Positions 23,815-41,084 of a stretch of DNA of 64,000 nt are shown piece after piece. Origin of the DNA: Candidatus Zixiibacteriota bacterium (GTDB lineage: Bacteria > RBG-13-66-14 > B26-G2 > WVWN01); NCBI GenBank assembly GCA_030613505.1, contig JAUWLW010000011.1:1-64000 (forward strand), written 5' to 3'. The translations under genes were made by a program, and so were the position numbers. Numbering within the stretch: position 1 is the stretch's first letter; each line of letters begins with the position of its first letter. The notes under the pieces are model-generated. The model made no database searches and was not told the origin of the DNA. It saw only the letters and a list, made by a program, of their open reading frames with translations.

Positions 23815-24456
23815 TTACCCCTCGAGTTGCGAAAGTCGCACCTCGCCGGCCCGGGCGCGGTAGGCGGTCTGGATGTCGGCGTCGACGCCCGGGGCTACGC
23901 TCACCTCGACGTTGACGTTGGGGGAGGCGACGTTTACGTTGGGGGCGCCGAAGTCGCCCGGGCCGAAGCCGTAGCCCGACCGGCCGCCGGACAGCAGCGC
24001 GCGCATCCGCTCCTGCGTAACGACGAACTCCGGCTCGCGCTCGCCGACTAAGGCGAGGGTGGGGCTACGGACCAGGCCCTCGTGTTGGAAGCCGAGGAGG
24101 CTCGTTATCATGCCGAGGCCAGGGATCATGCTGAGGATGGAGCTGATGCCCTCGGTGACGAGGTTGGTGGCCGCGGTGGTGGCCATCTGCCCGCCTAAGT
24201 CCGCCATCGCGCCCTTCACGTCCCCCGACTTGAACCCCTGGACCAGGCTTGACGAGATCATACCCGAGACGCGCTCTACGGAAGCTTTTTCGGCTTTTTT
24301 GTCTCTTCCGTCTCCTTCGCCTCCGCCTTCTTTTTTCGCACCTTTACCCTTTAACGGCTCCTCTTGCAGGCGCTCCAATTGCTCGCCGAGGGTCCCGAGA
24401 CCCTCCGTATCCTCAACCTTTAGCTCGCAGATTATTTCGTGTTGTTCTTGGTCCAT
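23815..24456 (-). CDS. Very short tail tape-measure-like protein
   Basis: 213 residues; the ATG at 24456 has GGGGGAG 6 bases upstream. N-terminus MDQEQHEIICELKVEDTEGL is typical of tape-measure starts. A Lys/Gly/Glu-rich linker leads to a hydrophobic stretch (EGISSILSMIPGLGMITSLL) and to GLVRSPTLALVGEREPEFVV, a C-terminal signature of many tape measures ('PTLALvGE.gpE.vvp'). The usual length is 500-2000 residues, so this is either a deletion product or a tape for a very short tail. The last ~24 residues (DADIQTAYRARAGEVRLSQL) also form the C-terminus of the truncated connector at 31822-32055. Confidence 0.6.
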   Translation of the reverse strand: MDQEQHEIICELKVEDTEGLGTLGEQLERLQEEPLKGKGAKKEGGGEGDGRDKKAEKASVERVSGMISSSLVQGFKSGDVKGAMADLGGQMATTAATNLVTEGISSILSMIPGLGMITSLLGFQHEGLVRSPTLALVGEREPEFVVTQERMRALLSGGRSGYGFGPGDFGAPNVNVASPNVNVEVSVAPGVDADIQTAYRARAGEVRLSQLEG

Positions 24457-24538
24457 GTTACTCCCCCCAATCGGGAATGGTGGTAATAAAACCATCGTAT
24501 AGCTGAAGGCCGTTTTTGTACGGACGATTTATATATCC

Positions 24539-24619
24539 TTAAACCCTCTGCGCCATTATTTCCGCGACTTTGGCAGCAACCGGGGCCGCAAGCGGACCCG
24601 GTTTCTTTTTATACCGCTT
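24539..24619 (-). pseudogene. Remnant of the LAAPLAP N-terminal segment
   Basis: Minus-strand codons between a stop and a TAA encode KKPGPLAAPVAAKVAEIMAQ, close to SGPLAAPLAPVIGEIMGQKA of the gene at 25975 and GPVAAPLAPVLGEIMGQKAA of the gene at 29018. No start codon or ribosome binding site is present. It is a third copy of this segment, cut off from any partner, which marks a recombination scar. Confidence 0.6.
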
Positions 24620-24632
24620 TCATGGCGGGACT

Positions 24633-25973
24633 TTAATACCGTAAGAAGGGAGACGGCTTCAACTCAACTAATCCCCCCAACGGTTGGTCGACCCTGTTGA
24701 GGTAATTCGAGCTATCGGCATCGAATTCGCCGCACCGGAGCCAAGATACGAGACGGGTTTCCTCCATATAGTTGCGGCCCCGGGCTTTAAAGAGAGGCGT
24801 CAAGGTTCGCGTCTCGACCTCAAGCAGTTGGAATTCGACGACCTCCTCCTCGTGGGAGGCCCCCGGTATATAACGGGCAAGCACGACGCCTAAACCCTCC
24901 GGCGGTTGGAGGGTCGTAACCACCCACCCCGCGGGAACCTTGTAGAAAGGACGCTCCAGGTCGACGCGGAAGCCGGGGCGGTCCAACGGGGCGAGGTATA
25001 AATAGCGGCTATGGGCGCGGTCTCCTTTGGCGGGAACGGAGATCAGGCACTGGCGTTCGCCGTTCAAAGGGATGACGTCTTCCGTCCCCACGTCCTCCCA
25101 GAGGTCCACCAACGGCAGAACGTCCTCCTTCCCCGCTTCTTTACGGATCTCCACCAAACGTTCGACGCAGCTACTCCGCCTCGGCCTGCGGCCCACCCAA
25201 ATGCCGCGGCGAAGTCCGCCGAGTACGTAGAAGTAGTTTCGGGAAACGGCCACGATGGGATAACCAGGTGTGCCCGGGAATAAGTGCCAACGGCAAGGGG
25301 GGCGCGTCTCGACGACGGCCACGTCGGACGGGGGGGCTCCGTAGTCCCCATGCCTCCGACCCTTAACGAAACGCATCACTAATTCCCCGGCGCCGTCGTC
25401 CCAATACATACTGCCAATAGAAGCCAGGGTATTAAAATCCAACGTCGCAGCGTACGTGAAAGGACCGCGTTCATTTTTACGGGTCAGTACGCCGACGTCC
25501 GGCCGGCTGAACTTAAACGGCCAGAAGAAGAAGAAGTGGCCATCACGGGACATGACTAAGTCTTGAGCCCGCCAGATGAATACGGCATACCCCACGCGCC
25601 GCCGCGACTCCTTAGTAAGGTTATATTCCATCAGCGCCGTAGTGAATTCCGGGAGGTCTACGGCCCCCACCCTCGCCAACGGCTCATCCGTCTCGACGCC
25701 GCGTTTATCGATAGGCCTGCGAACGCCCCGCCGGCGGGTGACCACAGCGTAGTATATGAGGTCGTCGCCGGCTTCGGGCGCCGGGGCGTAGTAGCCGGCC
25801 ATTTGGAGGCGCGTAACAATTATACGCGGGAGCGGAAGGCTAGCCGGAGCACCGCCGGGCGGCGGTTCTTTATCTAGGCCGGTACATACAACCAGGGTAA
25901 AGGCCAAGGCCAAAAGGCCGGCCGTACGTAATAAGCGGTTTCCCGAACAGGGCCTATGTGTCAAACTAACCAC
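24633..25973 (-). CDS. Exported propeller-like protein of unknown function
   Basis: 446 residues starting GTG one base after the caspase-like gene stop, so the two are in one operon. An N-terminal hydrophobic run (LLALAFTLVV) ends at Cys30, an atypical lipobox. The body has irregular strands like propeller blades ('FTYAATLDFNTLASIGSMYW', 'NYFYVLGGLRRGIWVG'), broadly similar in style to the exported proteins at 9129 and 41085. There is no catalytic motif. It is the last gene of a three-gene unit NHL, caspase-like, propeller-like. I infer a periplasmic or lipid-anchored binding partner. Confidence 0.55.
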   Translation of the reverse strand: MVSLTHRPCSGNRLLRTAGLLALAFTLVVCTGLDKEPPPGGAPASLPLPRIIVTRLQMAGYYAPAPEAGDDLIYYAVVTRRRGVRRPIDKRGVETDEPLARVGAVDLPEFTTALMEYNLTKESRRRVGYAVFIWRAQDLVMSRDGHFFFFWPFKFSRPDVGVLTRKNERGPFTYAATLDFNTLASIGSMYWDDGAGELVMRFVKGRRHGDYGAPPSDVAVVETRPPCRWHLFPGTPGYPIVAVSRNYFYVLGGLRRGIWVGRRPRRSSCVERLVEIRKEAGKEDVLPLVDLWEDVGTEDVIPLNGERQCLISVPAKGDRAHSRYLYLAPLDRPGFRVDLERPFYKVPAGWVVTTLQPPEGLGVVLARYIPGASHEEEVVEFQLLEVETRTLTPLFKARGRNYMEETRLVSWLRCGEFDADSSNYLNRVDQPLGGLVELKPSPFLRY

Positions 25974-25974
25974 G

Positions 25975-26679
25975 TTAATCTTCTATCGCTTTCCTAATAT
26001 ATTCCGGTATGTCCCTACGCGGTATACAATCCCCTCCGGTCCCGGGGATTACGGTCAACGTAAAATAACCCTCGGCGCCCTCGCCCTCTTCTTCGCGCTT
26101 TCGCCGTTTATCATCCCACTCCCTTTGCCTCTGCTCGCACGAGAAAATCCAAACCTCGCCGCCGGGTTTTAATAATTTCTCGACCTGGGCGAATAATTCA
26201 CTCGGAGCGACGTCGCTATAGGGATCGTAATAACCGGGTTCGGCGTTTTTAGGGCGAGCCCTTTCTAACGCGGGCCCGTAACCGGTGACGTTCCCTTTCT
26301 CGTCGAAAATAGGCTCCCCGCCACCGTGGACCAGGAGCGCTATGCGATCGAACTTCGGGGCCTCCTCCAACGTTTTACCTTCGAACTCTCGTTGCTTTTT
26401 GTACTCCTCCACTAACTCCTCTGGGGTAAACCAACCTTTTTTGAATTCATAAAAAAAGATTTCTTTACCTTCCGGTTTCATCTCCCTCCGCATATAGCTT
26501 TTAACCGCGTCAAATTCCGGGTACGTCTCCATAATGTTATGGTCGCCAACGAACAACGTCCGCTTCGTGATTTCCGGTTGTACCACCTCCTCCGCCTTCT
26601 GCCCCATGATTTCGCCTATTACCGGCGCAAGCGGGGCCGCAAGCGGGCCCGATTTCTCCTTGAGCCGGCCTTGCGCCAC
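25975..26679 (-). CDS. Caspase-like (clan CD-type) putative cysteine peptidase, copy 1
   Basis: 234 residues, GTG start. After the N-terminal LAAPLAPVIGEIMGQ segment, the rest has a Rossmann-like caspase pattern: TLFVGDHNIM strand, then DRIALLVHGGGEP with the candidate catalytic His, SELFAQVEKLLKPGGEVWIF, and then SCEQ with the candidate catalytic Cys. It ends with a conserved VIPGTGGDC loop. His-Gly followed by a strand-end Cys is the clan CD dyad layout; the three copies in this window share the HG, the C-x-Q and the 'PG.GG.' loop. The substrate is unknown. It lies 11 bases after an NHL propeller with a membrane anchor. No signal peptide, so it is probably cytosolic. Confidence 0.5.
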   Translation of the reverse strand: MAQGRLKEKSGPLAAPLAPVIGEIMGQKAEEVVQPEITKRTLFVGDHNIMETYPEFDAVKSYMRREMKPEGKEIFFYEFKKGWFTPEELVEEYKKQREFEGKTLEEAPKFDRIALLVHGGGEPIFDEKGNVTGYGPALERARPKNAEPGYYDPYSDVAPSELFAQVEKLLKPGGEVWIFSCEQRQREWDDKRRKREEEGEGAEGYFTLTVIPGTGGDCIPRRDIPEYIRKAIED

Positions 26680-26690
26680 CGTCTCTACTC

Positions 26691-27773
26691 TTAACGCGTC
26701 GTTGTCCCTTTTCGCCGTTTAAGGAAACGGCGCGCGATTAGCGTAATTAAAAAAACGATTATTAAGGCAGTTACGCCAAAAACGCCATACCGTGCAACGT
26801 GGAAAATCCGACTAGGCTTAAAACAACTTATACGCTGATTATAGCGGTCCGAAATGAATACGGTCCCACCCGGGGCCACGGCGATACCCGGGCCGTAGAC
26901 CGTACTACGGTTTTCTGGTAAACCGAAAGAGCCCAAGAACGAGCCGGCCGCGGTGAAATAATCGAAACGACGGCCAACCCCTACGCGAGGATTTTCGAAA
27001 ATGTAGACCTTGCCGTCCGTGCCGACGGCGATACCGCGGGGCTTCTTATACCTACTGTACCTACACCCCTCGGGCCCCCACCTCCCTAGATATGAACCTT
27101 CGGGGGTAAAGTACTGTACGCCGCCGAAGTCGTAATCTAAAACGTAAACGGTACCGTCCGGCCCTACTGCTAAATATAACGCTAAACCAAATTCCCCTTC
27201 CCCGGTCCCGTACGGACCCCATTCGGCGAGTAGAGTACCGTTAACGTCATAACGTTGTATACGCCGCCCCGTCGAAGCGTAGATATCGCCGTTGGGCCCA
27301 ACAGCCAACGGTCCTACTTCAGCTTCCCACTCCGATATCAATCGGCCCCGCGGCGTGAATTCGTACACGCGGCTTGCGGAGTGGTCGGCGGCGAAAACGG
27401 CTCCACCGCGCGCGATAGCTAAGCCGAAATACCCGAAACGAAACGGGGAAATCGGCATTTCCCATTCCCCGAGAAAAGACCCCGCACTCGAAAAGTATTG
27501 CACGTGACCCTCGGATGCGACGTATACGTCGCCCGTTGGCGCAACGACTACCGGTATCGGCGGAGCGCCGGTCCAACAACCGAAATCCTCTACCGGCCAT
27601 TCGCCCGCTTTAACGTAATCCGGCGGGTTGTTCACCTTTTTAATAAAAGATACGATTTTACGAAAACGGCTTTCGTCAGGCGTTTCGTCGATACGAGCCG
27701 ACGCCACTCCCAAGGAGCAAACGGCCACCGTTATTACTGCGAAAATTACTTTTTTATAAGGAATTGAATACAT
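26691..27773 (-). CDS. Membrane-anchored NHL-repeat propeller
   Basis: 360 residues from the ATG at 27773, which gives a clean signal peptide (KKVIFAVITVAVCSLGVASA); an upstream in-frame start at 27830 is less likely. Residues about 60-300 carry about five or six NHL repeats ('VAVGPNGDIYASTGRRIQRY' style). The C-terminus has a transmembrane helix (VFGVTALIIVFLITLIARRF) and a basic tail KRRKGTTTR. So the propeller is outside the inner membrane and the tail is in the cytosol, next to the caspase-like product encoded immediately downstream. This arrangement could allow signalling across the membrane, which is inference only. Confidence 0.8.
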   Translation of the reverse strand: MYSIPYKKVIFAVITVAVCSLGVASARIDETPDESRFRKIVSFIKKVNNPPDYVKAGEWPVEDFGCWTGAPPIPVVVAPTGDVYVASEGHVQYFSSAGSFLGEWEMPISPFRFGYFGLAIARGGAVFAADHSASRVYEFTPRGRLISEWEAEVGPLAVGPNGDIYASTGRRIQRYDVNGTLLAEWGPYGTGEGEFGLALYLAVGPDGTVYVLDYDFGGVQYFTPEGSYLGRWGPEGCRYSRYKKPRGIAVGTDGKVYIFENPRVGVGRRFDYFTAAGSFLGSFGLPENRSTVYGPGIAVAPGGTVFISDRYNQRISCFKPSRIFHVARYGVFGVTALIIVFLITLIARRFLKRRKGTTTR

Positions 27774-27890
27774 ACTTAACGTCCCAACATTGGGCCTATG
27801 AAAGGCTTCATGTCGCGGTCGAAATCGCATTCTTCCCCTTCACCGGGCCAAACGATGGCCCTAAAAGGGCGGCCACTTTCCGCTACGGCT

Positions 27891-28994
27891 TCATCCCATT
27901 CCTCCTGTTCGCCGCGTTTTAATTACCCGGCATATTATAAAGGAACCTACCAAGCTCGCAACGAAAACGCCGGCAGCGACGATTACCCACACGTATACGC
28001 GTTTATTAACCGAACGCTTGAACGTACGCACTTTCAAATCCCTACCGTCGGCAACGTAAACGTCGCCCGAAGGAGCCGCCGCTACCCCCCAGAAGAAATC
28101 GCCCCGGCGCGGCGGCGCGGTATACTCCAGCACGCCTTTTAACCGGCCGCGGCGGTCGAAGTATTCCACTTTATCCTTTGACATATCGGAAACGAATACC
28201 TCTCCCGCACGCGCAACGGCAACGGCGTTGGGGTATTTGAACTCGCTCGGGCCGGTGCCCTCTTCGCCCCACGCGCCGAGGAACGAACCGTCGGCGCTGA
28301 AATACTGCACGCGCTCGTTCAACGTGTCGGTAACGTATACCGCTTCCCCGTCCGGCGCTATTGCGATACTTTCGGGATAATGGAATTTACCCTCGGCTGC
28401 CCCGTACGAACCCCATTTACCCAAAAAGGAACCCGTACTCGAAAAATACTGAACCCTCTCGTTGAGGGTATCGGCGACGTAAACTCGGCCGGTCGAATCG
28501 ACTGCCAAACCCGCCGGGCTGCCGAATTGCCCTTCGCCGGTCCCGCGACTACCCCAGCCGCCCAAGTAAACGCCGTCCGACGAGAAGTAAATCACCGCAT
28601 CTCCGCACAGCGCGTAAACGTTGCCGTCGGGCCCGCCGGCAATACCCCGCGGCACGAACGTATACCTCGCCAACCCTACCGTACCGGGCGGCGGCGGCGG
28701 GACAACGTACCATTCATCAAGGGAGTTCCCCGTCGCGTCGTAACGGCGTATCCGCTGCGTTAACGGGTCGGCGACGTAGACATCGCCGTCCGGGCCTACG
28801 GCTATGGGGATCGGCGGCGCTAATATCATGCCACACCGGTGGAAACCTTCAAGGTCCCACTCGCCGGCGTATTCGTACCAGGTCGCAGGACCCGGCTTCA
28901 AGCGTTCGATGATATCCCGTTTGCCGCTACTGCACCCGGAGAAAATAATGAGGATAGATAAAAACGCGGAAAAAAAAACGAGGTTTTTACGCAC
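27891..28994 (-). CDS. Lipobox-bearing, membrane-anchored NHL-repeat propeller
   Basis: 367 residues, GTG start with AGGAGG 9 bases upstream. The N-terminus has a lipobox ending at Cys21 (ILIIFSGCSS). About six NHL repeats follow ('GLAVDSTGRVYVADTLNERV' style), then a C-terminal transmembrane helix (VWVIVAAGVFVASLVGSFII) and a basic cytosolic tail. The upstream gene, 23 bases away, encodes a caspase-like protein, so this is a second caspase-NHL pair with the order reversed relative to the first. Composition is noticeably lower in GC than neighbouring tail genes. Confidence 0.8.
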   Translation of the reverse strand: MRKNLVFFSAFLSILIIFSGCSSGKRDIIERLKPGPATWYEYAGEWDLEGFHRCGMILAPPIPIAVGPDGDVYVADPLTQRIRRYDATGNSLDEWYVVPPPPPGTVGLARYTFVPRGIAGGPDGNVYALCGDAVIYFSSDGVYLGGWGSRGTGEGQFGSPAGLAVDSTGRVYVADTLNERVQYFSSTGSFLGKWGSYGAAEGKFHYPESIAIAPDGEAVYVTDTLNERVQYFSADGSFLGAWGEEGTGPSEFKYPNAVAVARAGEVFVSDMSKDKVEYFDRRGRLKGVLEYTAPPRRGDFFWGVAAAPSGDVYVADGRDLKVRTFKRSVNKRVYVWVIVAAGVFVASLVGSFIICRVIKTRRTGGMG

Positions 28995-29017
28995 GGGGCG
29001 TACCTCCTTCCTGGTTT

Positions 29018-29791
29018 TTACAAACCCAATAAGTCGTCGATAAACGGAGCCGCGTCCTCTTCGTAACGGAAATCTCCCCCGCCTCCGGGGTAAATAATCA
29101 CGTCGAAGTTACAACCGGCCTTTTCCAGTTCTTCCTCCCATTCGCTTAGGTACTGGCCGCAAACTAAGAGCCATAAATCGCCTCCGGGTTTAAGGTATTT
29201 CGCAACTACCCTGAACAATTCTCTCGGTTCTACCGGATACAAATTCGCGCCCCTGGAGAGGGCTGGCTCGGCCGGCAAGCTATCTTCTTCGTACACGATC
29301 CTTGCCCCGTGCACCATTATACCTATCCGGTCGAAAACCACCTTATCATCCGTAGGCTGACCTTGTCTACTCGACCATTCTTCGTAGTAACTATCCATAA
29401 GTGTGGGTTCGAAGTATGAATGGAATTTTACGAACACGACCGTTTTATCGGGCCACGTGTTTTCGTATATCTTCCGTTTATCTCCTAATACCCTTTCGTC
29501 CGGATATAAGTCCGCATCGTAGACTATAAGCGTACGGCCGGCCAAATAGTCAACGGCCACCTCTTCCGCCGCCTTCTGCCCCATGATCTCGCCAAGCACG
29601 GGCGCGAGCGGGGCCGCAACCGGACCGAGTATTTCCGGAAGTTGAGCTTTAACGGCCTGCGTTACGGCAGCCGATACGTCCCTTGCGGCATTACCAGTAG
29701 TCGTTTGGACCACTACTTTTATCTTTTTTACCTTCCCCACTTTATAAATAATCCCCTTACATATTATACCCGCTATTCGTACGGCCGTCAA
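29018..29791 (-). CDS. Caspase-like protein with a tape-measure-like N-terminus, copy 2
   Basis: 257 residues if the TTG at 29791 is used; a GTG start about 17 codons further in is possible. Residues about 23-80 (VVVQTTTGNAARDVSAAVTQ, then LPEILGPVAAPLAPVLGEIM) are helical and could be the N-terminus of a tape measure, since the gene begins right after the tail chaperone where the tape measure normally starts. The rest is caspase-like: TLIVYDADLYP strand, DRIGIMVHGARIV with the His, LKPGGDLWLLVCGQ with the Cys, and VIIYPGGGGDFRY. It is most similar to the copy at 25975. The fusion looks like cargo that replaced the body of a phage gene. Confidence 0.5.
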   Translation of the reverse strand: MTAVRIAGIICKGIIYKVGKVKKIKVVVQTTTGNAARDVSAAVTQAVKAQLPEILGPVAAPLAPVLGEIMGQKAAEEVAVDYLAGRTLIVYDADLYPDERVLGDKRKIYENTWPDKTVVFVKFHSYFEPTLMDSYYEEWSSRQGQPTDDKVVFDRIGIMVHGARIVYEEDSLPAEPALSRGANLYPVEPRELFRVVAKYLKPGGDLWLLVCGQYLSEWEEELEKAGCNFDVIIYPGGGGDFRYEEDAAPFIDDLLGL

Positions 29792-30495
29792 TTAACCCAA
29801 ACGCTCGCGTCGCACGCGGCGCCGGGTATCTTCAACCGCCGCTTCCTCCTCCGCGGTTAAATTACACAGGCACTCCACCACGCCGTAGAACTTGGCCGCG
29901 TTCCACGCGAGGACGTCGCGAGGATCGAGGCCCAGCCGCCTCCCCACCTCCACGACCAGCTCCGTTAAGCCGCAGTACCTTGCCGGCCGGCCTCCTCTTT
30001 TTTTTTAAACATCACGCGCTCCAGCAAGCCGAATAAGGCCGGCGCGAGCGACGTCACCACGACGTCGGCTCGAGGAATCCGCTTCCGGAGGAGCTCGAGC
30101 GCCGCGGCCTCATCCACCTCCGGTACGACGTACTTTTTACGCCGCAACCAAGCGAACAACCCCCGCGGCCGCTGGTGGAGAAGCCAGAACGCTCGCGCCA
30201 ATATCGTTACGTACTCGTGGATGTCGGTTAGCTCCGGCCCCAGCCGCTCCAGCTCCCGCACCACGGCCTCGAACACCTCCAGCGACGGCACCGGTATCGT
30301 GACGCGCAGCCGCTCGTCCTCGTAGACGTAGACCTGCTCGTCGGCGAGGCGCTTGAGCTCCACGCCCACCCGGCCCGAGCCGGGCATCCCCGGCGCGTAG
30401 CGCGTTATCATCTCTTGCGCCTCGGCCGGAAGCTCCGACGACGGCCTTACGTCGGCGCCCAGCCGCTTCAGCTCCTCCTTCAGCTCCTCGCTCAT
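29792..30495 (-). CDS. Tail assembly chaperone GT, made by -1 frameshift
   Basis: If ribosomes slip back one base on the A9 run near the end of the G gene, the frame continues past the G stop for about 70 codons to TAA at 29794-29792. The extension reads RYCGLTELVVEVGRRLGLDP, then DVLAWNAAKFYGVVECLCNL, ending RRRVRRERLG. It is a well-formed, coding-looking extension of the type of lambda gpG-T and its functional analogues, where the G and GT proteins load the tape measure. Position between tail tube and tape measure is exactly right. The slip is inferred, not shown. Confidence 0.75.
29965..30495 (-). CDS. Tail assembly chaperone G
   Basis: 176 residues from the ATG at 30495, which overlaps the tail tube stop (TGATG); a longer upstream frame is a shadow. 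Content is mostly helical and acidic at first (MSEELKEELKRLGADVRPSS), then 'VPSLEVFEAVVRELERLGPE' and a basic segment (FAWLRRKKYVVPEVDEAAAL). It ends MFKKKEEAGRQGTAA at the slippery A run. The size, position and the -1 extension support a gpG-like chaperone. It would bind the tape measure in the cytosol during tail assembly. Confidence 0.7.
   Translation of the reverse strand: MSEELKEELKRLGADVRPSSELPAEAQEMITRYAPGMPGSGRVGVELKRLADEQVYVYEDERLRVTIPVPSLEVFEAVVRELERLGPELTDIHEYVTILARAFWLLHQRPRGLFAWLRRKKYVVPEVDEAAALELLRKRIPRADVVVTSLAPALFGLLERVMFKKKEEAGRQGTAA
29998..30007 (-). promoter_or_regulatory. Slippery site for -1 programmed frameshift
   Basis: On the coding strand, TTT is followed by nine A and then GAGG, so A-AAA-AAG-type heptamers are available. 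Slippage here joins chaperone G to its T extension. A GC-rich region follows, but I did not fold it. Confidence 0.7.
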
Positions 30496-31250
30496 CAGTC
30501 GAAGTAGATGACCAGGTCGCCGGAGGCGTCGTTGTTGACGCGGAACTCGCGCGTTAAGGCGTCGTGGCCCGCGCGCGTAGCGCCCAGCTTCAGCGCGCCG
30601 GTCCACACGATATCCTTGGCGTGGATCGTCATGCGGCCCAGCGTATTGGTCTCCAGGAACCGCTCGATGACGAGATACCCCGCCCAACTTGACGGCGTAT
30701 CCGTAGGTCCTATCGTGACCTTGACGCCGGAGGTGTTGGTATACAGGTACGTCGTCTTGACCGCCTTGTCGGCGTCCGCGGAGTGGAACGTCAGCACGCC
30801 GCTCGCGACCTGGACCTCGCCCGACCCCGACGGCGCGCCGGAGACGACCTGGAAGTACGACTTGGCCGCGCCCGAGCCGGTATACACGGAGCCGTGGCCT
30901 ATGGAGTCGTCGCCGCAGTTGGCGGAGTTGGTCAGCGTCACGTCGTACGGCGAGCCGGACGGGACCGTCCCCGCCTCCTCCTTGGCCACCGATATGCCCT
31001 GCGAGGCGGTGGTCGAGCCGCCGATCAGCGCCGCGACCAGGTTGGCGTCGGAGTAGTGCCAGCCGATGGTCCCGCCGAACCCGCCTATCAGCGCGTGGTA
31101 CGCGTTCTGGTTGTTCCAGTTCCCCTTCGGGATCTCGATCTCCTTGGTGTCGACGTTGAAGTTTATCTCGGCGTAGCCCAGGAACGGGTACTTGTTCGTG
31201 GTGTCGAACACCATCCCCTGGCCCACCAGCGCACCCAGTGCGAGTGCCAT
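30495..31250 (-). CDS. Major tail tube protein
   Basis: 251 residues. The sequence is beta-rich, Gly/Ser/Thr-rich and lacks a signal (ALALGALVGQGMVFDTTNKY start). 'TYLYTNTSGVKVTIGPTDTP' and a final 'REFRVNNDASGDLVIYFD' fit the tail-tube/major tail protein character. GGGGGGAT lies upstream. It is followed by chaperone G/GT and preceded by the tail completion gene, the usual order of a siphovirus-type tail operon. Assignment is by composition and position. Confidence 0.75.
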   Translation of the reverse strand: MALALGALVGQGMVFDTTNKYPFLGYAEINFNVDTKEIEIPKGNWNNQNAYHALIGGFGGTIGWHYSDANLVAALIGGSTTASQGISVAKEEAGTVPSGSPYDVTLTNSANCGDDSIGHGSVYTGSGAAKSYFQVVSGAPSGSGEVQVASGVLTFHSADADKAVKTTYLYTNTSGVKVTIGPTDTPSSWAGYLVIERFLETNTLGRMTIHAKDIVWTGALKLGATRAGHDALTREFRVNNDASGDLVIYFD

Positions 31251-31311
31251 AATCTATCCCCCCTGGTTGTGGGTTATGTGAAAAGGAATTTTTTTAACGA
31301 AGTGTTGCGTT

Positions 31312-31749
31312 TTATACGCCGCCCGGGACGAGGCCGGTCGAGAAGTCGAACCGCACCTCGACCGTTACGTTCTCGGGCTTCTGCACCACCTTGGTGGCGC
31401 TGGCGGCGACGTCGTACCAGGGCGGCCCGTCGCCGGAGATGACCGGCAGGCCGCGCCGGACGCCCTCCCGCACCGTCTCCACCAGGTGGCTCGCCAGGTC
31501 GCCGGCGTTCTCGTGGGCGTCCTCCTTCGAGCCGTGCTGGATGGCGGCGCGCACCGAGGCGTGGCACACGGCCCACCCCAGCCGGTCGTACGTGTCGGCG
31601 CCCATCTCGACCTCGAACGTGGGCTGCGTGAACCGGCCTATGGGCGCGGCCTTCTCGTAGACGTAGCTCGAGCCGTACTCGTCCTTCAACAGCTGGACGA
31701 GGTAGCGCTTCACGCGCTCGCCCGGGCTCTCTCCTATCGTTACGGCCAT
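31312..31749 (-). CDS. Tail completion/terminator-type protein
   Basis: 145 residues starting MAVTIGESPGERVKRYLVQL. It has an alpha/beta layout with a helix near residues 10-22, and 'GWAVCHASVRAAIQHGSKED' leading to a 'TVEVRFDFSTG' last strand. In phage order, this slot between the head-tail connector and the tail tube usually holds the tail terminator or minor tail protein U/Z type. GGAGG is 8 bases upstream. The gene is short and unfused. No specific family is recognised. Confidence 0.6.
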   Translation of the reverse strand: MAVTIGESPGERVKRYLVQLLKDEYGSSYVYEKAAPIGRFTQPTFEVEMGADTYDRLGWAVCHASVRAAIQHGSKEDAHENAGDLASHLVETVREGVRRGLPVISGDGPPWYDVAASATKVVQKPENVTVEVRFDFSTGLVPGGV

Positions 31750-31821
31750 AGCGTCAAACCTCCGCGGCTGCGACGCGGCGTTCTGTTATTAAGTTGGAAT
31801 GGGAATGTGAACGGGTGGAAA

Positions 31822-32055
31822 CTAGCCCTCGAGCTGGGAGAGGCGGGCCTCGCCGGCTCGCGCCCGGTAGGCGGTCTGGATGTCGGCGTCAACGCCGGGG
31901 TCGGAAAGGTCGTAGCGGTCGCGCAGGACCGCCTCTATCTCGGCCTCCGCCCGGTCGCGGTTGGCGGTTACGCGCGCGTCCGCGCACAGGTCGCTCGTAA
32001 GCAGCGGATACTCCGTCCGCACGTCGCTTACGTTCGCCGGAGTCGTCCAGGCCAT
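31822..32055 (-). pseudogene. Truncated gp36-like connector fused to a tape-measure-type C-terminus
   Basis: 77 residues. The first ~53 residues match the start of the full connector copies (AWTTPANVSDVRTEYPLLTS, then RAEAEIEAVLRDRYDLSDPG). They then switch to VDADIQTAYRARAGEARLSQ, which is the C-terminus of the protein at 23815-24456 with one substitution. So this is a recombinant scar of two phage genes. It could still be translated. It closes the cassette that holds the NHL gene at 32183 and the caspase-like gene at 33154, together with the full connector at 33785. Confidence 0.7.
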
Positions 32056-32104
32056 CTTTAATTCACCATCCTATTAGCGCGTCCCCAGGCCGGCCTCGAG
32101 CCAA

Positions 32105-32190
32105 TCGAGGCGCCGGTGGTAAACGCTGCAATCGTTTAATGGGAAATGCGCGAGATGGGAAACTTACGGTGAGGAAAGGTTGTTACTTAT
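32105..32190 (-). repeat. ~85-bp intergenic repeat, copy 1
   Basis: From GAGGCGCCGGTGGTAAACGC through AATCGTTTAATGGG and GAGATGGGAAACTT to GAGGAAAGGTTGTTACTTAT. This sequence recurs at 37715, 40988 and 42270, about 85-90% identical by eye. It overlaps the last codons of the NHL gene (the DDK end) and continues downstream of it. Confidence 0.85.
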
Positions 32191-33157
32191 CGTCCGCGGC
32201 GACGGGGCGGAAGTATTGGACGCGGTGGTTGCCGGCGTCGGCAACGTAGACGGTGCCGTATGCGGCGACGGCTACGGTAATGGGGCCGGAGAATTCGCCT
32301 TCGCCTTTACCGTACGAACCGAATTGACCCAGGAAAGAACCCTCGCGGGAGAAGTATTGTACCCGTTCGTTGCCGACGTCTGCGATGAAGATGGTACCGT
32401 TGGAACCTACGGCGACGCCGCTCGGGAATTCGAATTTACCCTCCCCCGACCCGTGCCGTCCGAAAGATGCGACACACGAACCGTCGGAAGTAAACCGCTT
32501 AACTACGCATTCGTACGTATCCGCGACTAAAAATCCGCCTTCGGAGGTGGACGCCAAGGCAGCCGGGTAGAAACGGCCGCTTTTTTCTCCCACGACGGCC
32601 GGACGAGACTTGAAGATTATCGACCCGGCTTCATCATAACATGTTACGAACGGCGACGCGCCATCACCCACTAAAACCCGGCCACCAGCGGTTACGGTAA
32701 GAGAGGGCGGCATACCGTAAACGTACAGCCTTTCCCTAGGGTTGGCGTCTCGGTAAGGCCACTCGTTTATGAACGAGCCGGCGGCGGTAAACCTTTTCAC
32801 GTTGCGGGTACGCGCGTCGGCAACGAAAACCGAACCGTCGATACCCGCCGCTAAACATACCGGTTCTAACCCCGGGGGATTTCCCCCTTCTTCGGGAACC
32901 TGAGGATCGAGTTGCCATTTAGTTATGAAAGAACCTGAACCCGAAAAAACCTGTACCGTTCGTGCCGCCTCGTCAATCGCGTAAACACTACCTTGCGGTC
33001 CGACGGCAATACCGACCAACTCGAGGAATTGCCCGTCGCCCGAGCCCTTTTCGCCCCAACCGCCGGCGTAAACGTACCTCTGGGGGGCCGCGGGTTTGGG
33101 GCTGCACGTTACGGACAAAGCAACCGCTAATAACGTTATTGAAAATAGGCGCGTCAT
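32183..33157 (-). CDS. Lipobox-like NHL-repeat propeller
   Basis: 324 residues. A hydrophobic leader (RLFSITLLAVALSVT) ends at Cys18, an atypical lipobox. About six NHL repeats follow ('GSNGTIFIADVGNERVQYFS' style) and the protein ends VQYFRPVAADDK, an end shared with the NHL proteins at 37794, 38739 and 42350 (PDDK, ADDK, PEDK). The start overlaps the stop of the caspase-like gene by ATGA, so the two are translationally coupled. The ~85-bp repeat begins at its last codons. Lower GC than the phage structural genes on either side. Confidence 0.85.
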   Translation of the reverse strand: MTRLFSITLLAVALSVTCSPKPAAPQRYVYAGGWGEKGSGDGQFLELVGIAVGPQGSVYAIDEAARTVQVFSGSGSFITKWQLDPQVPEEGGNPPGLEPVCLAAGIDGSVFVADARTRNVKRFTAAGSFINEWPYRDANPRERLYVYGMPPSLTVTAGGRVLVGDGASPFVTCYDEAGSIIFKSRPAVVGEKSGRFYPAALASTSEGGFLVADTYECVVKRFTSDGSCVASFGRHGSGEGKFEFPSGVAVGSNGTIFIADVGNERVQYFSREGSFLGQFGSYGKGEGEFSGPITVAVAAYGTVYVADAGNHRVQYFRPVAADDK

Positions 33158-33708
33158 TTCCCGAATAAACTACCAAACCATTGTAATAAGTTAGGCGGTT
33201 CTTCCTCAACTATAAACTTACCCCTAAGTTCCGGGTATTTGAAACCTCGACCCGTACCCGGCCATACTCTCAACTTCCGTGTGAACCCGCAGGATATCGC
33301 CCATTCCCGCCACTTGTCTATTTTTTGGTAACACGCGCATATATACAACGTTCCATCACCCGCGATATAAGGCGCGGTATTTCGGAATATCTCGTCAGGA
33401 CTTATTAATTCTAGTTGCGGGGGCCAATGCCGCAATAAACCGGGTCCCGGGTAAACGCCATGATGGTAAATTATAATATGGTCGAACCGTCGCCAACCGC
33501 TAACACCTTGATAAGTCCGCCACACGAAAGTATTTTGGATCGTACTACCGATGTCGTCGGGTTCGGTCGGAACGAAATAGGCAAAATCCAATATGACATC
33601 ATTCGCCTCGGCCAGGTCGAGATAAGTTTCCTTATCCCCCTCTACGTCGCCGGCTTGGCGACTACCAAGGGCTGTGACTATACACGCGAATTCCGTGCGA
33701 TCGCCCAT
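33154..33708 (-). CDS. Caspase-like putative cysteine peptidase, copy 3
   Basis: 184 residues, the shortest of the three, without the LAAPLAP segment. The caspase-like core is DHIIIYHHGVYPGPG with the His, then PDEIFRNTAPYIAGDGTLYI leading to CACYQ with the Cys, and VWPGTGRGFKY. The order of motifs and spacing match the copies at 25975 and 29018. Its start is weak (no clear Shine-Dalgarno site). It overlaps the NHL gene that follows by four bases. If the His-Cys dyad is real, this is a caspase-like peptidase with a propeller partner; otherwise it is a degenerate relative of the other two. Confidence 0.5.
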   Translation of the reverse strand: MGDRTEFACIVTALGSRQAGDVEGDKETYLDLAEANDVILDFAYFVPTEPDDIGSTIQNTFVWRTYQGVSGWRRFDHIIIYHHGVYPGPGLLRHWPPQLELISPDEIFRNTAPYIAGDGTLYICACYQKIDKWREWAISCGFTRKLRVWPGTGRGFKYPELRGKFIVEEEPPNLLQWFGSLFGK

Positions 33709-33784: not shown

Positions 33785-34243
33785 TTAATCGTCGTCGTTG
33801 AATGGGAATCCCGGCCCGGGATGTTTATTAAGGCCGAAACTACTAAAGGCGCTCTTTCCCAGGTCGAAATTCCCCACCGTCGGCGTAGGGATGTTCCTCG
33901 ATACTTTTAAAGAAAGCTTTACCTTGCCTCGAAGAACGTCCGCTTTAAATACTTCCCACTCGTGCCAGTACGTCGAAGCCGCCGTCCGCCCCTCCCCGGT
34001 CCACCCCTGCTCGCCGTACGCCGAGTTGATGCAGTGGTAGAGCGTCAGCGCCAGGCAGATGCGCCACACGTACTTGTCGGCGCCGGGGTCCGTCAGGTCG
34101 TAGCGGTCGCGCAGGACCGCCTCTATCTCCGCCTCCGCCCGGTCGCGGTTGGCGGTAACTCGCGCGTCCGCGCACAGGTCGCTCGTAAGCAGCGGATACT
34201 CCGTCCGGACGTCGCTTACGTTCACGGGAGTCGTCCAGGCCAT
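33785..34243 (-). CDS. gp36/DUF1320-like head-tail connector, original position
   Basis: 152 residues: AWTTPVNVSDVRTEYPLLTS, then NRDRAEAEIEAVLRDRYDLT, the hydrophobic ICLALTLYHCINSAYGEQGW and a Gly/Phe-rich end. This matches the Mu gp36-like (DUF1320) family, a head-tail connector or adaptor. Here it follows the major capsid and a short protein, the usual place in Mu-type head operons, so I treat it as the resident copy. Two further full copies are at 40493 and 44103 and a truncated one at 31822. Its start shares a base with the stop of the gene before it. Confidence 0.75.
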   Translation of the reverse strand: MAWTTPVNVSDVRTEYPLLTSDLCADARVTANRDRAEAEIEAVLRDRYDLTDPGADKYVWRICLALTLYHCINSAYGEQGWTGEGRTAASTYWHEWEVFKADVLRGKVKLSLKVSRNIPTPTVGNFDLGKSAFSSFGLNKHPGPGFPFNDDD

Positions 34244-34600: not shown

Positions 34601-34637
34601 GAGCCCGGGTTGGCCAAGCCTCCCCGGGCTCTTTTTT
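34601..34637. terminator. Hairpin after the major capsid gene
   Basis: GAGCCCGGG (34601-34609) and CCCGGGCTC (34623-34631) form a 9-bp stem, with a T6 run on the plus strand and CCTTTT on the minus side. On the coding (minus) strand it follows the capsid stop, so it may reduce readthrough into the genes downstream, as is common after highly expressed capsids. Confidence 0.7.
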
Positions 34638-35556
34638 AGACGTCGCCGATTATCGCAAGGTACCACGGGCCGTAGCCGAAGCGGTACCGCTCGTACGTCT
34701 TGGTGACGTAGTTGTCGGTATGCTGGTCGGGCTCGAAGACGTTGACCTCGAGGTCGATGCGCTTCTGGAATATGAACGGCCTTACGGGCTTGCCTAGGTC
34801 GAGGAAGTACCAGGCGGTGGCGCTGGAGATGTAGGGCGTCTGGATGAGCGCCAGCTTCTCGTAGAACGGGTTGTAGCCGGCGTTGGCGGTGCCCGCGGCG
34901 CCCGGCGTGTTGATGAGCATCTCCCACGCGACGCCGGTGTCGCCGGCGCCGGTCACGATGTGGGTCGGCCGGACGTCAAGCGGGCTGCCCTTGGGGTCCG
35001 TGAAGGCGCGCATTACCTTGAGGACGTCGATGGCGTTTGAGAGTGACGTCGCCAGATCGGCGGTCCCCACGGCCTTGTTCTGGTCGTCGTTGGACTGGTT
35101 GGAGCTGCCGGCGTGGTCGGTGTCGAAGAAGTACTGGCCGTCGTGGCACGTGGCGGCGGTGCCGCCGGTGACGAGCGAGGCCCAGTTATCCTGGAGCTTG
35201 ATCTGGTGGCCTATGGCGGCGCTCTGGAACTTCTGGCGGATGTAGTTGTGCCGGTCGTCCTCCACCATCTTGCGGTGGATGTCGATGGCCAGGCCGTAGG
35301 TGTAGTTGGTTAAGGAGTAGCTCTCGTCGTCTAGGCCGTAGTGGATGCGGGCGTCCTCGTCGATGCGCCCCGGGACCGGCAAGCGGCCGCCGAAGCCGTA
35401 GTACTCTGTTTCGCCGTCGCTCGACGTCACCATAACGGCGTCCTTCCAGGAGGCGTCCTGGTAGTACGAGTCCTCGTAGATGCGGAAGAACTCCTCCTTG
35501 CACGCCACCTCCAGGACCCGGGCGAAGTCGCTCGGCGAAAGGTTAGGTCCTGCCAT
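34636..35556 (-). CDS. Major capsid protein, Mu gpT-like
   Basis: 306 residues. The pattern ETEYYGFGGRLPVPGRIDED, then NYTYGLAIDIHRKMVEDDRH and DGQYFFDTDHAGSSNQSN matches the Mu major head subunit gpT family (tyrosine/glycine-rich loop, 'v.R..veDD', 'FFDTDHa'). It would form the icosahedral shell. GGGGGG lies upstream of ATG. The order protease/scaffold, decoration protein, capsid is standard. A terminator follows immediately. Confidence 0.85.
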   Translation of the reverse strand: MAGPNLSPSDFARVLEVACKEEFFRIYEDSYYQDASWKDAVMVTSSDGETEYYGFGGRLPVPGRIDEDARIHYGLDDESYSLTNYTYGLAIDIHRKMVEDDRHNYIRQKFQSAAIGHQIKLQDNWASLVTGGTAATCHDGQYFFDTDHAGSSNQSNDDQNKAVGTADLATSLSNAIDVLKVMRAFTDPKGSPLDVRPTHIVTGAGDTGVAWEMLINTPGAAGTANAGYNPFYEKLALIQTPYISSATAWYFLDLGKPVRPFIFQKRIDLEVNVFEPDQHTDNYVTKTYERYRFGYGPWYLAIIGDV

Positions 35557-36111: not shown

Positions 36112-37671
36112 TTATAATTGGCCGTAGAGCTCGCCGAGGCGGCGCTCGATGGCGGCTTCGTCGTAGCCCATCGCCTTAAGCACTTCCACCACTTCGGGGT
36201 TCTCGCGCGCCAAAGGCGACGGCTCCGCGGGCCGGCCGTGCTCCTGGGGCTCGCCTCCGGTGGGCGCGGCGTCGAAGCGGACCTCCAGAGCCGCCGCGGC
36301 CTCCATCGCGAGCTCCTTGTCCTTCAGATAGAGCTCGAGCCACTTGCTTTGATGCGCCGGCTTGGCACGGCCCGCGCGGACCAGCGCCTCGGCGAAGCGT
36401 TCCGCCTCGGCCTCGAAGGCCATGCGGTCGTGGGCGGCGCGCTCGAGCTTCTCCAGCCGGAGATTGTCGCGCTCGGCCTTGACGGCCTCGAAGTCGGTCG
36501 CCAGCCGCTCGTGCCGACCCCGGAGCGCCTCGAAGCGGGCGCTCAGGCCGTCGAGCCGCGTCTCCATCCGGGCGACGTCTTTCGACGGAGCGCCCTCGCC
36601 GCGGAAGCCGAGCTTGCCGAGGAACTTCGCCAGCCGCCGCGACTTAGCGCCTTCGGCCTCGACCGCGGCCTTGTCTTCCTCCGCGGGTTTCTCCCCTTCC
36701 GCCTTGGCCTCCTCCAGCAGCGCCTCCAGCTCCTCGCGGACGCGCTCGCGGTCTTCCTCGGGAATCGGCTCGCCGGTGGACATAGTCTCGGCGTCGAGCG
36801 CCGCCAACGCCTCCTCCACGTGCGAGAGCGAGACGTTGCCTTCCGCGTCGCGGACCGGGAAGTGGCGCAGCTCGCGCGGGACGGTCTTACCCTCCTCGTC
36901 GGCCTCGCCGCCGGGCTCTACGTAGGCGAACGACTCGTCGGGCAGGGCGTCGACGTACTCGGCGTCCCACTTTTCCTCGGGCCCTTCGGCCTTCGGCTCC
37001 TTCTCGTCGTCGACGGCGTCGCCGGCGCGGAAGTAGAAGCCGCCGTCGCGGCGCGCTTCCATCAGCGCCTGGAAGCCGTCCTGTTCGCGGACGTGGGGGT
37101 CGAGGGTCAGGGCGACGTGGCGGATGACCTCGTCGTAGCGGCGGCCGCAGGCCGTGAGCACCGGCCCCACGCCGACGGAGACGTCCTGGATGGTGCCGTC
37201 CACGATGCGGGCGGCGGTGTCCTCGTCGGTAATGTTGAAGACGCCGTAGAGCTTGCCGTCGGCGATCTCGAAGGCCTCCACCCAGCCGGCGTTGTCGGCG
37301 GGATGGTAGGAGTGGTGGTACGGGACCCAGGTCTTGACGCCGGCGGCCCGGGTATCGTTCACCCAGTCCCGCAGGCGCTCGAGCGTGACGTCGACCGTCT
37401 TGCCCGGGTCGTCGGGGAGGACGTAGCGGCCCACGCGGATTATCTCCTTGCGGAAGCGCGCCTCGGCCTTGAGCGTCCACTCGCCTTCGGCCTCCTCGTA
37501 TTTTTCTTTGGCCTTCTCCCAGGCGACGTCGGCGCACTCCTTCTGGGCGGCCTCGTCGGTCTTGCCCTTGTCGGCCAGGCAGGCGAAGTAGGACTCGCGC
37601 AAGAGCTCGTTGAGCTCCGCGGGGGCGTCCGGGCCGGCCTCGGGCGGTTTGAGCTTCTTCTCGTCGGGCAT
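36112..37671 (-). CDS. Prohead protease and scaffold (Mu gpI-type)
   Basis: 519 residues; I use the ATG at 37671 because GGAGGGG precedes it. Residues about 55-200 look like the Mu I-type protease region (VPYHHSYHPADNAGWVEAFE, then DEDTAARIVDGTIQDVSVGV and VIRHVALTLDPHV), with a His in 'YHHSYHP' and a Ser in 'SVGV' as candidate dyad members. The remaining half is charged and helical (METRLDGLSARFEALRGRHE) and would be the scaffold core that is cleaved. This combined protease-scaffold is typical of Mu-like heads. It sits just before the decoration and capsid genes. Confidence 0.7.
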   Translation of the reverse strand: MPDEKKLKPPEAGPDAPAELNELLRESYFACLADKGKTDEAAQKECADVAWEKAKEKYEEAEGEWTLKAEARFRKEIIRVGRYVLPDDPGKTVDVTLERLRDWVNDTRAAGVKTWVPYHHSYHPADNAGWVEAFEIADGKLYGVFNITDEDTAARIVDGTIQDVSVGVGPVLTACGRRYDEVIRHVALTLDPHVREQDGFQALMEARRDGGFYFRAGDAVDDEKEPKAEGPEEKWDAEYVDALPDESFAYVEPGGEADEEGKTVPRELRHFPVRDAEGNVSLSHVEEALAALDAETMSTGEPIPEEDRERVREELEALLEEAKAEGEKPAEEDKAAVEAEGAKSRRLAKFLGKLGFRGEGAPSKDVARMETRLDGLSARFEALRGRHERLATDFEAVKAERDNLRLEKLERAAHDRMAFEAEAERFAEALVRAGRAKPAHQSKWLELYLKDKELAMEAAAALEVRFDAAPTGGEPQEHGRPAEPSPLARENPEVVEVLKAMGYDEAAIERRLGELYGQL

Positions 37672-37714
37672 ATTGAACCCCTCCAATCTTAAATTATGGA
37701 AAGCTTGCCGGCCG

Positions 37715-37800
37715 CTCGAGGCGCCGGTGGTAAACGCTGCGATTGATTAATGGAGATTAAGGGAGATGGGAAACTTGCCGCGAGGAAAGGTTGTTACTTA
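37715..37800 (-). repeat. ~85-bp intergenic repeat, copy 2
   Basis: Carries the shared GAGGCGCCGGTGGTAAACGC core, GATTGATTAATGGAG, GAGATGGGAAACTT and GAGGAAAGGTTGTTACTTAT. It overlaps the 3' end of the NHL gene at 37794-38723 and lies between it and the protease/scaffold gene. Confidence 0.85.
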
Positions 37801-39785: not shown

Positions 39786-40484
39786 TTAAGGCCGGACGGG
39801 TCCGAAAGGCCAAGGACAAGTATACCGCACCGTAACGTACCAATGGGGCGGGTCCCCCGTTAGGTGGTAGAAACCGCCCACGTCGTTGTCACCTATACTG
39901 TGCAAGACGGCTGGGTCCATCGGCGGGTCGAATCGGTTGGCGAAAAAAGTCTTAGCATCAGGCCTCGTAACGACGTCAACGGCGCAACCGTTCCAATGGC
40001 CGAACGCGTCGCTTGCGTCCCGAATGCCGTACGGGTCACTCTCGGGTAAACCATTAATTACCGGCGTACCCAAGCGCCGATAACCCGACGTTAAGTATAT
40101 AACCGGCTTCATTCCGGCGGGTATGCCCCAGGGGCGAGGGAATAATTTCTTATGCTCCTCCCACGCCGCGTCGCGCCACTCGCGCAGCTTCTCGATTAAC
40201 TCCGGACGCGCCAACATACACCGATCGCCGTGCGCCGTCGTCGCGACCTTATTGGGGATAGGCTCCAGGACATTTTTCTCTATATCGTCGACGACAGCCT
40301 GTAAATCCTCCCACGAACTTACGCCCGGTTGGTGCCTTTTAAAGCTCGTTATTAAATCCCTAATCGCGGCCCGTTCTTCCCAGTCGTTGGAATACGCGTA
40401 CGACGCCAGCGTTCGGAAGCGGCAAGAATTCAACCCCCGAACCGTGGAGTGCCGGGCCAATGGTCCCATCGGGTCGGCAGCCAT
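39786..40484 (-). CDS. M15-like zinc peptidase, copy 2
   Basis: 232 residues. The C-terminal half has the M15 metallopeptidase pattern: VIYLTSGYRRLGTP, then AFGHWNGCAVDVVT with the first zinc His and Asp, and GDPPHWYVTVRY with the second His, where Asp of DPPH stands in the place of the usual catalytic Glu. M15 peptidases cut peptidoglycan peptides and occur as phage endolysins. Residues 1-110 are helical with 'RLLTSFKRHQPGVSSWEDLQ'-type segments, possibly regulatory. It is preceded 8 bases upstream by a gp36-like gene and followed by an NHL propeller. Near duplicate of the gene at 43396. Confidence 0.65.
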   Translation of the reverse strand: MAADPMGPLARHSTVRGLNSCRFRTLASYAYSNDWEERAAIRDLITSFKRHQPGVSSWEDLQAVVDDIEKNVLEPIPNKVATTAHGDRCMLARPELIEKLREWRDAAWEEHKKLFPRPWGIPAGMKPVIYLTSGYRRLGTPVINGLPESDPYGIRDASDAFGHWNGCAVDVVTRPDAKTFFANRFDPPMDPAVLHSIGDNDVGGFYHLTGDPPHWYVTVRYTCPWPFGPVRP

Positions 40485-40954: not shown

Positions 40955-40987
40955 TACCATACACCTTCCTTCGCCGGCCTCGAGCCG

Positions 40988-41070: not shown

Positions 41071-41084
41071 TTACGGCCGGGCCG

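What the first reader, a model, noticed from the sequence alone, without database searches (positions are those of the whole stretch)
24633..33708. Caspase-like proteins paired with NHL propellers inside a phage tail module
Three related genes (25975-26679, 29018-29791, 33154-33708) share a strand-His-Gly motif (LLVHGG, IMVHGA, IYHHGV), a strand ending in Cys-x-Gln (SCEQ, VCGQ, CACYQ) and a PG.GG loop in the same order. That is the layout of a clan CD (caspase-like) His-Cys dyad. Each one lies next to an NHL propeller gene: 33154 overlaps 32183 by four bases, 29018 is 23 bases before 27891, and 26691 is 11 bases before 25975. Two of the propellers have a membrane anchor with a cytosolic tail. 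A caspase-like protein with a membrane-spanning or exported propeller sensor, carried by a phage, would be a plausible undescribed defence, exclusion or lysis-control system. Family membership is from motif reading; function is inference.
Basis: partly seen in the sequence, partly recalled or inferred. Interest (0 to 1): 0.85.

Follow-up and report, generated by a model that had tools for sequence, protein, structure and literature searches.

The report
Phage-borne peptidase and propeller gene cassettes
A prophage-derived gene cluster in a Candidatus Coatesbacteria genome carries exchangeable two-gene cassettes, each a predicted peptidase followed by an exported (usually propeller-shaped) partner protein, and this looks like a set of toxin and immunity pairs, although neither the toxicity nor the protease fold has been shown.

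Summary
In detail: three related genes with an invariant His-Gly and Cys, at the stated coordinates, each beside an NHL gene. They have no detectable relative outside this genus. The caspase fold could not be confirmed: AlphaFold models are weak, and there is no Pfam, PDB or PADLOC hit at a significant E-value. NHL genes are so common here that simple adjacency is weak evidence (p=0.046).

What is really there is larger. In this genus a prophage-derived cluster is interrupted by cassettes that follow one rule: a predicted peptidase gene, then immediately an exported partner gene, usually a propeller. The rule holds for 14 of 15 peptidase genes, against 1 of 31 structural genes. Cargo includes caspase-like, M15/VanY-like and HExxH proteins. 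Cassettes lie between duplicated connector and tail genes, have a low GC3 shared by both partners, and in G006 a caspase-like and a VanY-like protein share one N-terminal domain.

Best reading: prophage-encoded polymorphic effector/immunity cassettes. The periplasmic partial propeller Tsi1, which blocks the Cys-His hydrolase Tse1, is the precedent. Function is inferred.

The parts
33154..33708 (-). caspase-like protein 3 (184 aa); H83-G84, C126; cassette A hydrolase
32183..33157 (-). exported NHL propeller, partner of 33154 (4-bp overlap)
   Evidence: PF01436 E 3.6e-24; N-terminal hydrophobic signal
29018..29791 (-). caspase-like protein 2 (257 aa); H161-G162, C211; cassette B hydrolase
27891..28994 (-). 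exported NHL propeller with lipobox-like FSGC and C-terminal TM segment, partner of 29018 (23-bp gap)
27794..27910 (-). decayed caspase-like copy (C-terminal ~40 aa), directly upstream of 26691
   Evidence: (E 2.4e-4)
26691..27830 (-). exported NHL propeller with C-terminal TM segment; inferred partner of the decayed copy
25975..26679 (-). caspase-like protein 1 (234 aa); H118-G119, C181; cassette C hydrolase
24633..25973 (-). exported lipoprotein-like protein (LVVC at 30), 1 bp after 25975, inferred partner; no Pfam match and no significant match to the lp41085 family
24539..24619 (-). decayed copy of the caspase-like N-terminal segment (GPLAAPVAAKVAEIMAQRV)
   Evidence: sequence
43396..44094 (-). 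VanY/M15-like predicted peptidase, cassette D
   Evidence: motif SxYRxLG...GHWxGxxxD...HW in alignment A6; no Pfam match
42350..43282 (-). exported NHL propeller, partner of 43396
39786..40484 (-). VanY/M15-like predicted peptidase, cassette E (84% identical to 43396)
38739..39671 (-). exported NHL propeller, partner of 39786
37794..38723 (-). additional exported NHL propeller
41085..42155 (-). exported non-NHL protein, same family as the partners of G004 caspase-like genes
44103..44564 (-). connector-like gene, copy 3
   Evidence: repeats D2, D3
40493..40960 (-). connector-like gene, copy 2
33785..34243 (-). connector-like gene, copy 1, upstream of 33154
31817..32090 (-). chimeric ORF: connector 5' end joined to tail-gene (23815) 3' end
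   Evidence: repeats D3, D8
23815..24495 (-). tail gene (tape-measure C-terminus-like by reading), multicopy beside cassettes in G004
32089..32189 (.). D7 repeat at cassette boundary (further copies 37700-37800, 40973-41073, 42256-42356)
34636..35556 (-). major head protein
   Evidence: phrog_371 E 1.4e-35
36112..37686 (-). head maturation protease
   Evidence: phrog_976
44571..45869 (-). portal
   Evidence: phrog_113
45856..47160 (-). terminase large subunit
   Evidence: phrog_2

Best explanation
The caspase-like genes are the first genes of exchangeable two-gene cassettes inserted in a prophage-derived head-tail cluster. Each cassette encodes a cytosol-made predicted peptidase (caspase-like, M15/VanY-like or HExxH) and, immediately downstream, an exported partner, usually a beta-propeller, that sits in the envelope. 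Proposed mechanism (inferred): the peptidase is an effector that reaches a neighbour's envelope or cytoplasm when particles form or the producer lyses, and the exported partner is its immunity protein, covering the active site in the producer's and its kin's envelope, as Tsi1 does to Tse1. Duplicated connector and tail genes provide homology for gaining, losing and swapping cassettes. Shown here: cassette layout, duplicated flanks, swapping between close relatives, a shared N-terminus on different enzymes, and purifying selection on structural genes and two duplicated cassette genes. Inferred: the peptidase folds, toxicity, delivery and immunity.
For: (1) Order rule: 14 of 15 peptidase genes are immediately followed by an exported partner, against 1 of 31 structural genes; Fisher 9e-10, none of 20,000 permutations as extreme; window alone 5 of 5, p=0.0006. 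(2) Coupling: caspase-like pairs are spaced -4, 23, 1, 10 and -4 bp. (3) Both genes of a cassette share low GC3 (peptidases 0.56, partners 0.59) against structural genes 0.87 and chromosomal NHL genes 0.79. (4) Polymorphism: same kinds of slot, different enzymes, in G004 and G006: caspase-like of a second family (L039, L069), VanY-like, HExxH. (5) In G006 a caspase-like and a VanY-like protein share a 49%-identical N-terminus (first 45 aa); in G004 an amidase-like and a VanY-like protein share another. (6) Every homologue found in 14 Coatesbacteria genomes lies in this cluster, all beside an exported protein. (7) In G002 a VanY-like gene stands in the endolysin position without a propeller, so the partner belongs to the cassette form. 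(8) Precedents: Tse1/Tsi1 (PMC3391265), prophage polymorphic toxins (PMC5576092, PMC11699363), caspase-like toxin domains (PMC3482391).
Against: No toxicity, binding or delivery was tested. The caspase fold is unproven, and the VanY and HExxH calls are motif-level only. No shared N-terminal domain covers all cassettes; the caspase-like N-termini do not match the tail gene's N-terminus. The partner families (NHL, lp, lp24633) differ, and propellers are abundant in this phylum for other reasons. One VanY-like gene (G004:C33:730-1767) has its propeller upstream. The neighbour statistic used labels I assigned after seeing the loci. Members are few: 4 + 2 intact caspase-like genes in three genomes.
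Confidence: 0.45

Rival explanations
1. Lysis or entry modules: the peptidases are variant endolysins (or entry hydrolases) of a domesticated prophage, and the propellers are envelope-anchored regulators or spanin-like parts that time release; the caspase-like protein controls lysis proteolytically.
For: A VanY-like gene stands in the endolysin position at the tail end in G002, next to a small holin-like ORF; VanY-like relatives also occur in G008-G011. The Caulobacter GTA needs LypABC, a peptidase-containing CARD-NLR-like system, for release (PMC13236601).
Against: Several cassettes per cluster, diverse unrelated enzymes and repeated cassette exchange are not expected of one lysis module. An amidase-like gene (6503-7177) already stands at the tail end in the window. 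The propeller is missing where the VanY-like gene stands as the lone endolysin.
Confidence: 0.2
2. No functional pairing: an expanded NHL family and orphan genes accumulate as passenger (moron) genes in a decaying prophage; order and spacing reflect insertion of a few ancestral blocks that were then duplicated.
For: NHL genes are everywhere in this genome, reader-style adjacency is only p=0.046, duplications inflate counts (39786/43396 are copies), decayed copies exist, and the cluster is scattered in G005.
Against: Independent caspase-like, VanY-like and HExxH families obey the same order in three genomes; both partners share a composition distinct from chromosomal NHL genes; the duplicated VanY-like and NHL genes are under purifying selection, dN/dS about 0.19 and 0.16.
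Confidence: 0.2
3. One reading: caspase-like protease with a membrane-spanning propeller sensor, acting in phage defence, superinfection exclusion or abortive death.
For: Two propellers have predicted C-terminal TM segments; caspase-like proteases act in bacterial cell-death systems (general knowledge).
Against: Most partners lack a C-terminal TM segment; tails of about a dozen residues are too short for signalling; the protease slot is filled by VanY-like and HExxH proteins in other cassettes; no PADLOC match beyond a weak mad2 hit (E 0.02).
Confidence: 0.1
4. Fold-level rival: the proteins are not caspase-like but another Rossmann-type fold (for example methyltransferase-, flavodoxin- or SGNH-like), so that the His and Cys are not catalytic.
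For: Best PDB sequence matches of the profile include methyltransferases (E 0.07-1) and Foldseek/VIA tops are flavodoxin-, SDR- and CE2-type; LKPGG resembles a methyltransferase loop.
Against: The predicted order b-a-b-a-b(HG)-a-b(C)-a-b-a fits a caspase p20-type core; no glycine-rich motif I is seen in the N-terminal half; seven of the 50 listed BFVD matches are annotated caspase or metacaspase, though weak; the G004 family aligns with C14 and with DUF4347 with His and Cys in register (single-comparison P 0.008 and 0.009).
Confidence: 0.3

Closest known systems
Tse1/Tsi1 effector-immunity pair of Pseudomonas aeruginosa T6SS (PMC3391265)
   Same: Cys-His hydrolase effector with an exported partial beta-propeller partner; bicistronic organisation
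   Different: Tse1 is an NlpC/P60 peptidoglycan amidase delivered by T6SS; here the peptidases are caspase-like or M15-like, the propellers NHL-type, and the setting is a prophage-derived cluster with many cassettes
MuF polymorphic toxins of temperate phages (PMC5576092)
   Same: Toxin candidates placed in a phage structural module next to head genes
   Different: MuF toxins are C-terminal domains fused to a MuF head protein; here the peptidases are stand-alone genes beside duplicated connector and tail genes, without a MuF domain found
Bxa prophage-encoded polymorphic toxin of Bacteroides with two immunity proteins (PMC11699363)
   Same: Prophage-encoded toxin with a shared N-terminal domain on diverse toxins, and adjacent immunity genes
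   Different: Bxa is an ADP-ribosyltransferase and its immunity proteins differ in kind
Tox-Caspase domains of polymorphic toxins (PMC3482391)
   Same: Caspase-like His/Cys peptidases as toxin or releasing domains, also in tail-like PVC systems
   Different: No detectable sequence similarity to curated caspase families; not fused to known trafficking domains
LypABC, CARD-NLR-like release system of the Caulobacter GTA (PMC13236601)
   Same: Peptidase proteins serving a domesticated prophage
   Different: Trypsin-like peptidases plus an ATPase NLR-like hub; no propeller, no cassettes
NHL repeat propellers (Pfam PF01436)
   Same: Most partners are members by profile
   Different: Cassette NHL proteins differ from chromosomal ones in GC3 and C-terminal ending (often ...YFRPxAxDDK rather than ...SLGRVKALFR)

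Membership tests
Peptidase clan CD (caspase-like) | His-Gly after a hydrophobic strand and Cys after a later strand | tested here: met
   Invariant H161-G162 and C211 in three window proteins and the G006 homologue; 43-63 residues apart; background rate 1.3%
Peptidase clan CD (caspase-like) | Caspase-haemoglobinase alpha/beta/alpha fold with His and Cys adjacent | tested here: inconclusive
Peptidase clan CD (caspase-like) | Sequence membership in a known family (C14, CHAT, C25, C80, DUF4347) | tested here: not met
   No Pfam or NCBIfam hit to any of them up to E 10; no C14 or DUF4347 match in G000; profile-profile not significant for the window family, but the control C14 vs DUF4347 also fails, so power is low
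Peptidase clan CD (caspase-like) | Proteolytic activity depending on His and Cys | not testable with these tools
   needs biochemistry
Polymorphic toxin/immunity system | Toxin gene immediately followed by a cognate immunity gene | tested here: inconclusive
   layout met: 14 of 15 followed by an exported partner; cognate immunity function untested
[quoted passage not shown]
   Met for G006:C114 caspase-like and VanY-like (49% over 45 aa) and for the G004:C47 pair (45% over 56 aa); not seen across all cassettes, no match to the tail gene N-terminus
Polymorphic toxin/immunity system | Toxicity neutralised by the partner | not testable with these tools
   needs expression tests
MuF toxins | MuF domain fused to the toxin | tested here: not met
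   no MuF (or other) Pfam match in the caspase-like proteins and only weak single-member PHROG hits
Peptidase family M15 (VanY-like) | Zn ligand motif HxxGxxxD ... H | tested here: met
   GHWxGxxxD...HW in alignment A6 (one member, L038:730-1767, has YW in place of the last HW)
Peptidase family M15 (VanY-like) | Profile match | tested here: not met
   no Pfam match up to E 1, no PDB match
NHL propeller | PF01436 match | tested here: met
   all five tested cluster NHL proteins above cut-off
Gene transfer agent | Vertically inherited structural cluster under purifying selection | tested here: inconclusive
   Syntenic in the genus, dN/dS mostly 0.14-0.22; but Coatesbacteria head proteins fall in three separate clades and the cluster is scattered in G005
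Gene transfer agent | Packages random host DNA | not testable with these tools
   needs particles

The most novel reading that the evidence does not exclude
A domesticated prophage has become a cassette bank: its duplicated connector and tail genes act as recombination handles that load, swap and discard peptidase + exported-propeller pairs, arming phage-like particles or lysis with a changing set of envelope-acting effectors against kin and neighbours, with exported propellers as a general class of immunity proteins for proteases.
Probability: 0.2. Interest if true: 0.85.

Novelty: new variant of a known kind. Interest (0 to 1): 0.6.

Why it matters
If right, it extends prophage-encoded toxin/immunity systems to an uncultured phylum, adds protease effectors with exported NHL propellers as likely immunity proteins (a role so far described, to my knowledge, for the partial propeller Tsi1), and offers a function for part of the expanded propeller families of Coatesbacteria. 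Duplicated structural genes flanking cassettes would also be a simple, visible route by which a prophage becomes a reservoir for swapping weapons. It is testable with synthetic gene pairs in E. coli.

Tried and rejected
Phylum-wide domestication of a single prophage: rejected as stated, because Coatesbacteria head proteins form three separate clades among Armatimonadota, other bacteria and viral contigs. Cargo N-termini copied from the tail gene: no support. lp24633 as a member of the lp41085 family: not detected. Relatives of the caspase-like proteins outside the genus: none in GTDB genomes, IMG/VR, phages by tblastn; the pattern-based scans reach close relatives only. PADLOC mad2 (E 0.02) and PHROG 37357 (E 0.0075) hits are single-member and weak, not pursued. 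Second AlphaFold job (G004 family) gave pLDDT 37 and was not used for fold search. No caspase entry appeared in the PDB fold lists, which with a weak model excludes nothing. No paper was found that couples NHL repeats, phages and caspases.


Full report
OBSERVATION. The three genes exist at the stated places and are homologous. His-Gly, Cys-x-Gln and Pro-Gly-x-Gly are invariant among them. Pfam, NCBIfam and PDB searches find nothing significant, and PHROGs and PADLOC give only single-member weak hits (E 0.0075 and 0.02). The propellers are NHL proteins.

ORGANISM AND SETTING. The genome is held unnamed, but G005 of the same genus matches CP070633, Candidatus Coatesbacteria bin961. The surrounding genes are a prophage-derived head and tail cluster: terminase, portal, head protease and major head protein have PHROG matches. 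The cluster is syntenic in the genus: tail15734, PhzF18574 and the tail gene occur together in G004:C10 and G006:C123. Structural genes are under purifying selection, dN/dS mostly 0.14-0.22, higher (0.30) for tail14596. A head-protein tree of 161 sequences puts Coatesbacteria in three clades, so this is not one phylum-wide element.

CASSETTES. In transcription order the window reads terminase, portal, connector copy, VanY-like 43396, NHL 42350, lp41085, connector copy, VanY-like 39786, NHL 38739, NHL 37794, head protease, decoration-like gene, head protein, 34243, connector, caspase-like 33154, NHL 32183, a connector/tail chimera, tail genes, caspase-like 29018, NHL-TM 27891, caspase-like remnant, NHL-TM 26691, caspase-like 25975, lipoprotein 24633, remnant, tail gene 23815. 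Connector and boundary repeats are direct repeats. In G004 and G006 the same flanks hold other cargo: a second caspase-like family (L039:5337-6212 with YDQIHFVGHG...VKIVLAACFS; L069:1813-2664 with KYDQIHIVGHG...KIALMACGS), a 33154 homologue (L072:2724-3455), VanY-like genes and HExxH genes. Counting all readable loci, 14 of 15 peptidase genes are directly followed by an exported partner, against 1 of 31 structural genes. The labels were mine and made after seeing the loci; some cassettes are duplicates. The composition evidence does not depend on gene order: GC3 0.56 (peptidases) and 0.59 (partners) against 0.87 (structural) and 0.79 (chromosomal NHL).

Under the order rule 26691 belongs to the decayed caspase-like copy at 27794-27910 just upstream, and 25975 belongs to lipoprotein 24633, which starts 1 bp downstream.

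DISTRIBUTION. Profiles of both caspase-like families find significant members only in G000, G004 and G006, all in this cluster, and an exported protein gene follows each intact member. The two G004 proteins are followed by non-NHL exported proteins of the lp41085 family. VanY-like relatives occur in G002 and G008-G011; in G002 the gene lies in the endolysin position without a propeller.

FOLD. The A1 model shows b-a-b-a-b-a-b-a-b-a with HG after the third and Cys after the fourth strand, at low confidence. PDB matches are generic Rossmann/flavodoxin types. In BFVD, seven of the 50 listed rows are annotated caspase or metacaspase, all with E above 0.005. The G004 family aligns to C14 and to DUF4347 with His and Cys in register, at single-comparison P 0.008 and 0.009; the window family does not reach significance, and neither does the control C14 against DUF4347. 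I put the caspase-like fold at about 0.6-0.65.

MECHANISM. Shown: cassette layout, exchange between relatives, duplicated flanks, exported partners (hydrophobic N-termini in all examined; lipobox-like motifs in several), a shared N-terminus on different enzymes. Inferred: the peptidases are effectors and the exported partners immunity proteins. Tsi1, a periplasmic partial propeller that occludes the Cys-His site of Tse1, is the closest working model (PMC3391265). Prophage-encoded polymorphic toxins are known (MuF, PMC5576092; Bxa, PMC11699363), and caspase-like toxin domains are catalogued (PMC3482391). The lysis-module rival has support from the endolysin-like VanY position and from LypABC (PMC13236601).

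LIMITS. Draft metagenome genomes; G004 contigs break at the repeats and contain N runs; alignments have 2-7 sequences; no expression data; motif-level enzyme assignments.

Noticed in passing
29790-30498 (-): Tail gene 29965-30498 contains TTTAAAAAAAAA near its 3' end and a second open frame continues to about 29790: a candidate programmed frameshift of a tail assembly chaperone pair.
   Followed up: no
49567-60125 (-): Chromosomal NHL proteins and others (57321) end in a shared motif P-x-SLGRVKALF(R/K); it is absent from cassette NHL proteins and may be a C-terminal sorting signal of this phylum.
   Followed up: partly
L069:14783-20000 (G004:C47): Outside the head-tail genes, about 10 kb beyond the terminase: VanY-like protein followed by a 623-aa NHL protein, and an amidase-like protein followed by a TolB-like repeat protein, the two enzymes sharing an N-terminal domain.
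   Followed up: partly
L073:6324-7307 (G006:C123): In-frame chimera of the tail gene and the tail-tube-like gene, another product of recombination in this cluster.
   Followed up: no
L037:2504-3422 (G004:C27): Major head protein gene split by a frame change in this genome.
   Followed up: no
805-5826: Lower-GC element with primase/helicase-like protein, HTH regulator and integrase next to tRNA-Pro(TGG), apparently separate from the head-tail cluster.
   Followed up: no
L034, L074 (G005): In G005 the head protein and the portal/protease fragments lie about 115 kb apart, while the head protein stays 93% identical.
   Followed up: partly
L094-L108: Related head proteins occur in many Armatimonadota/Fimbriimonadales genomes.
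   Followed up: no
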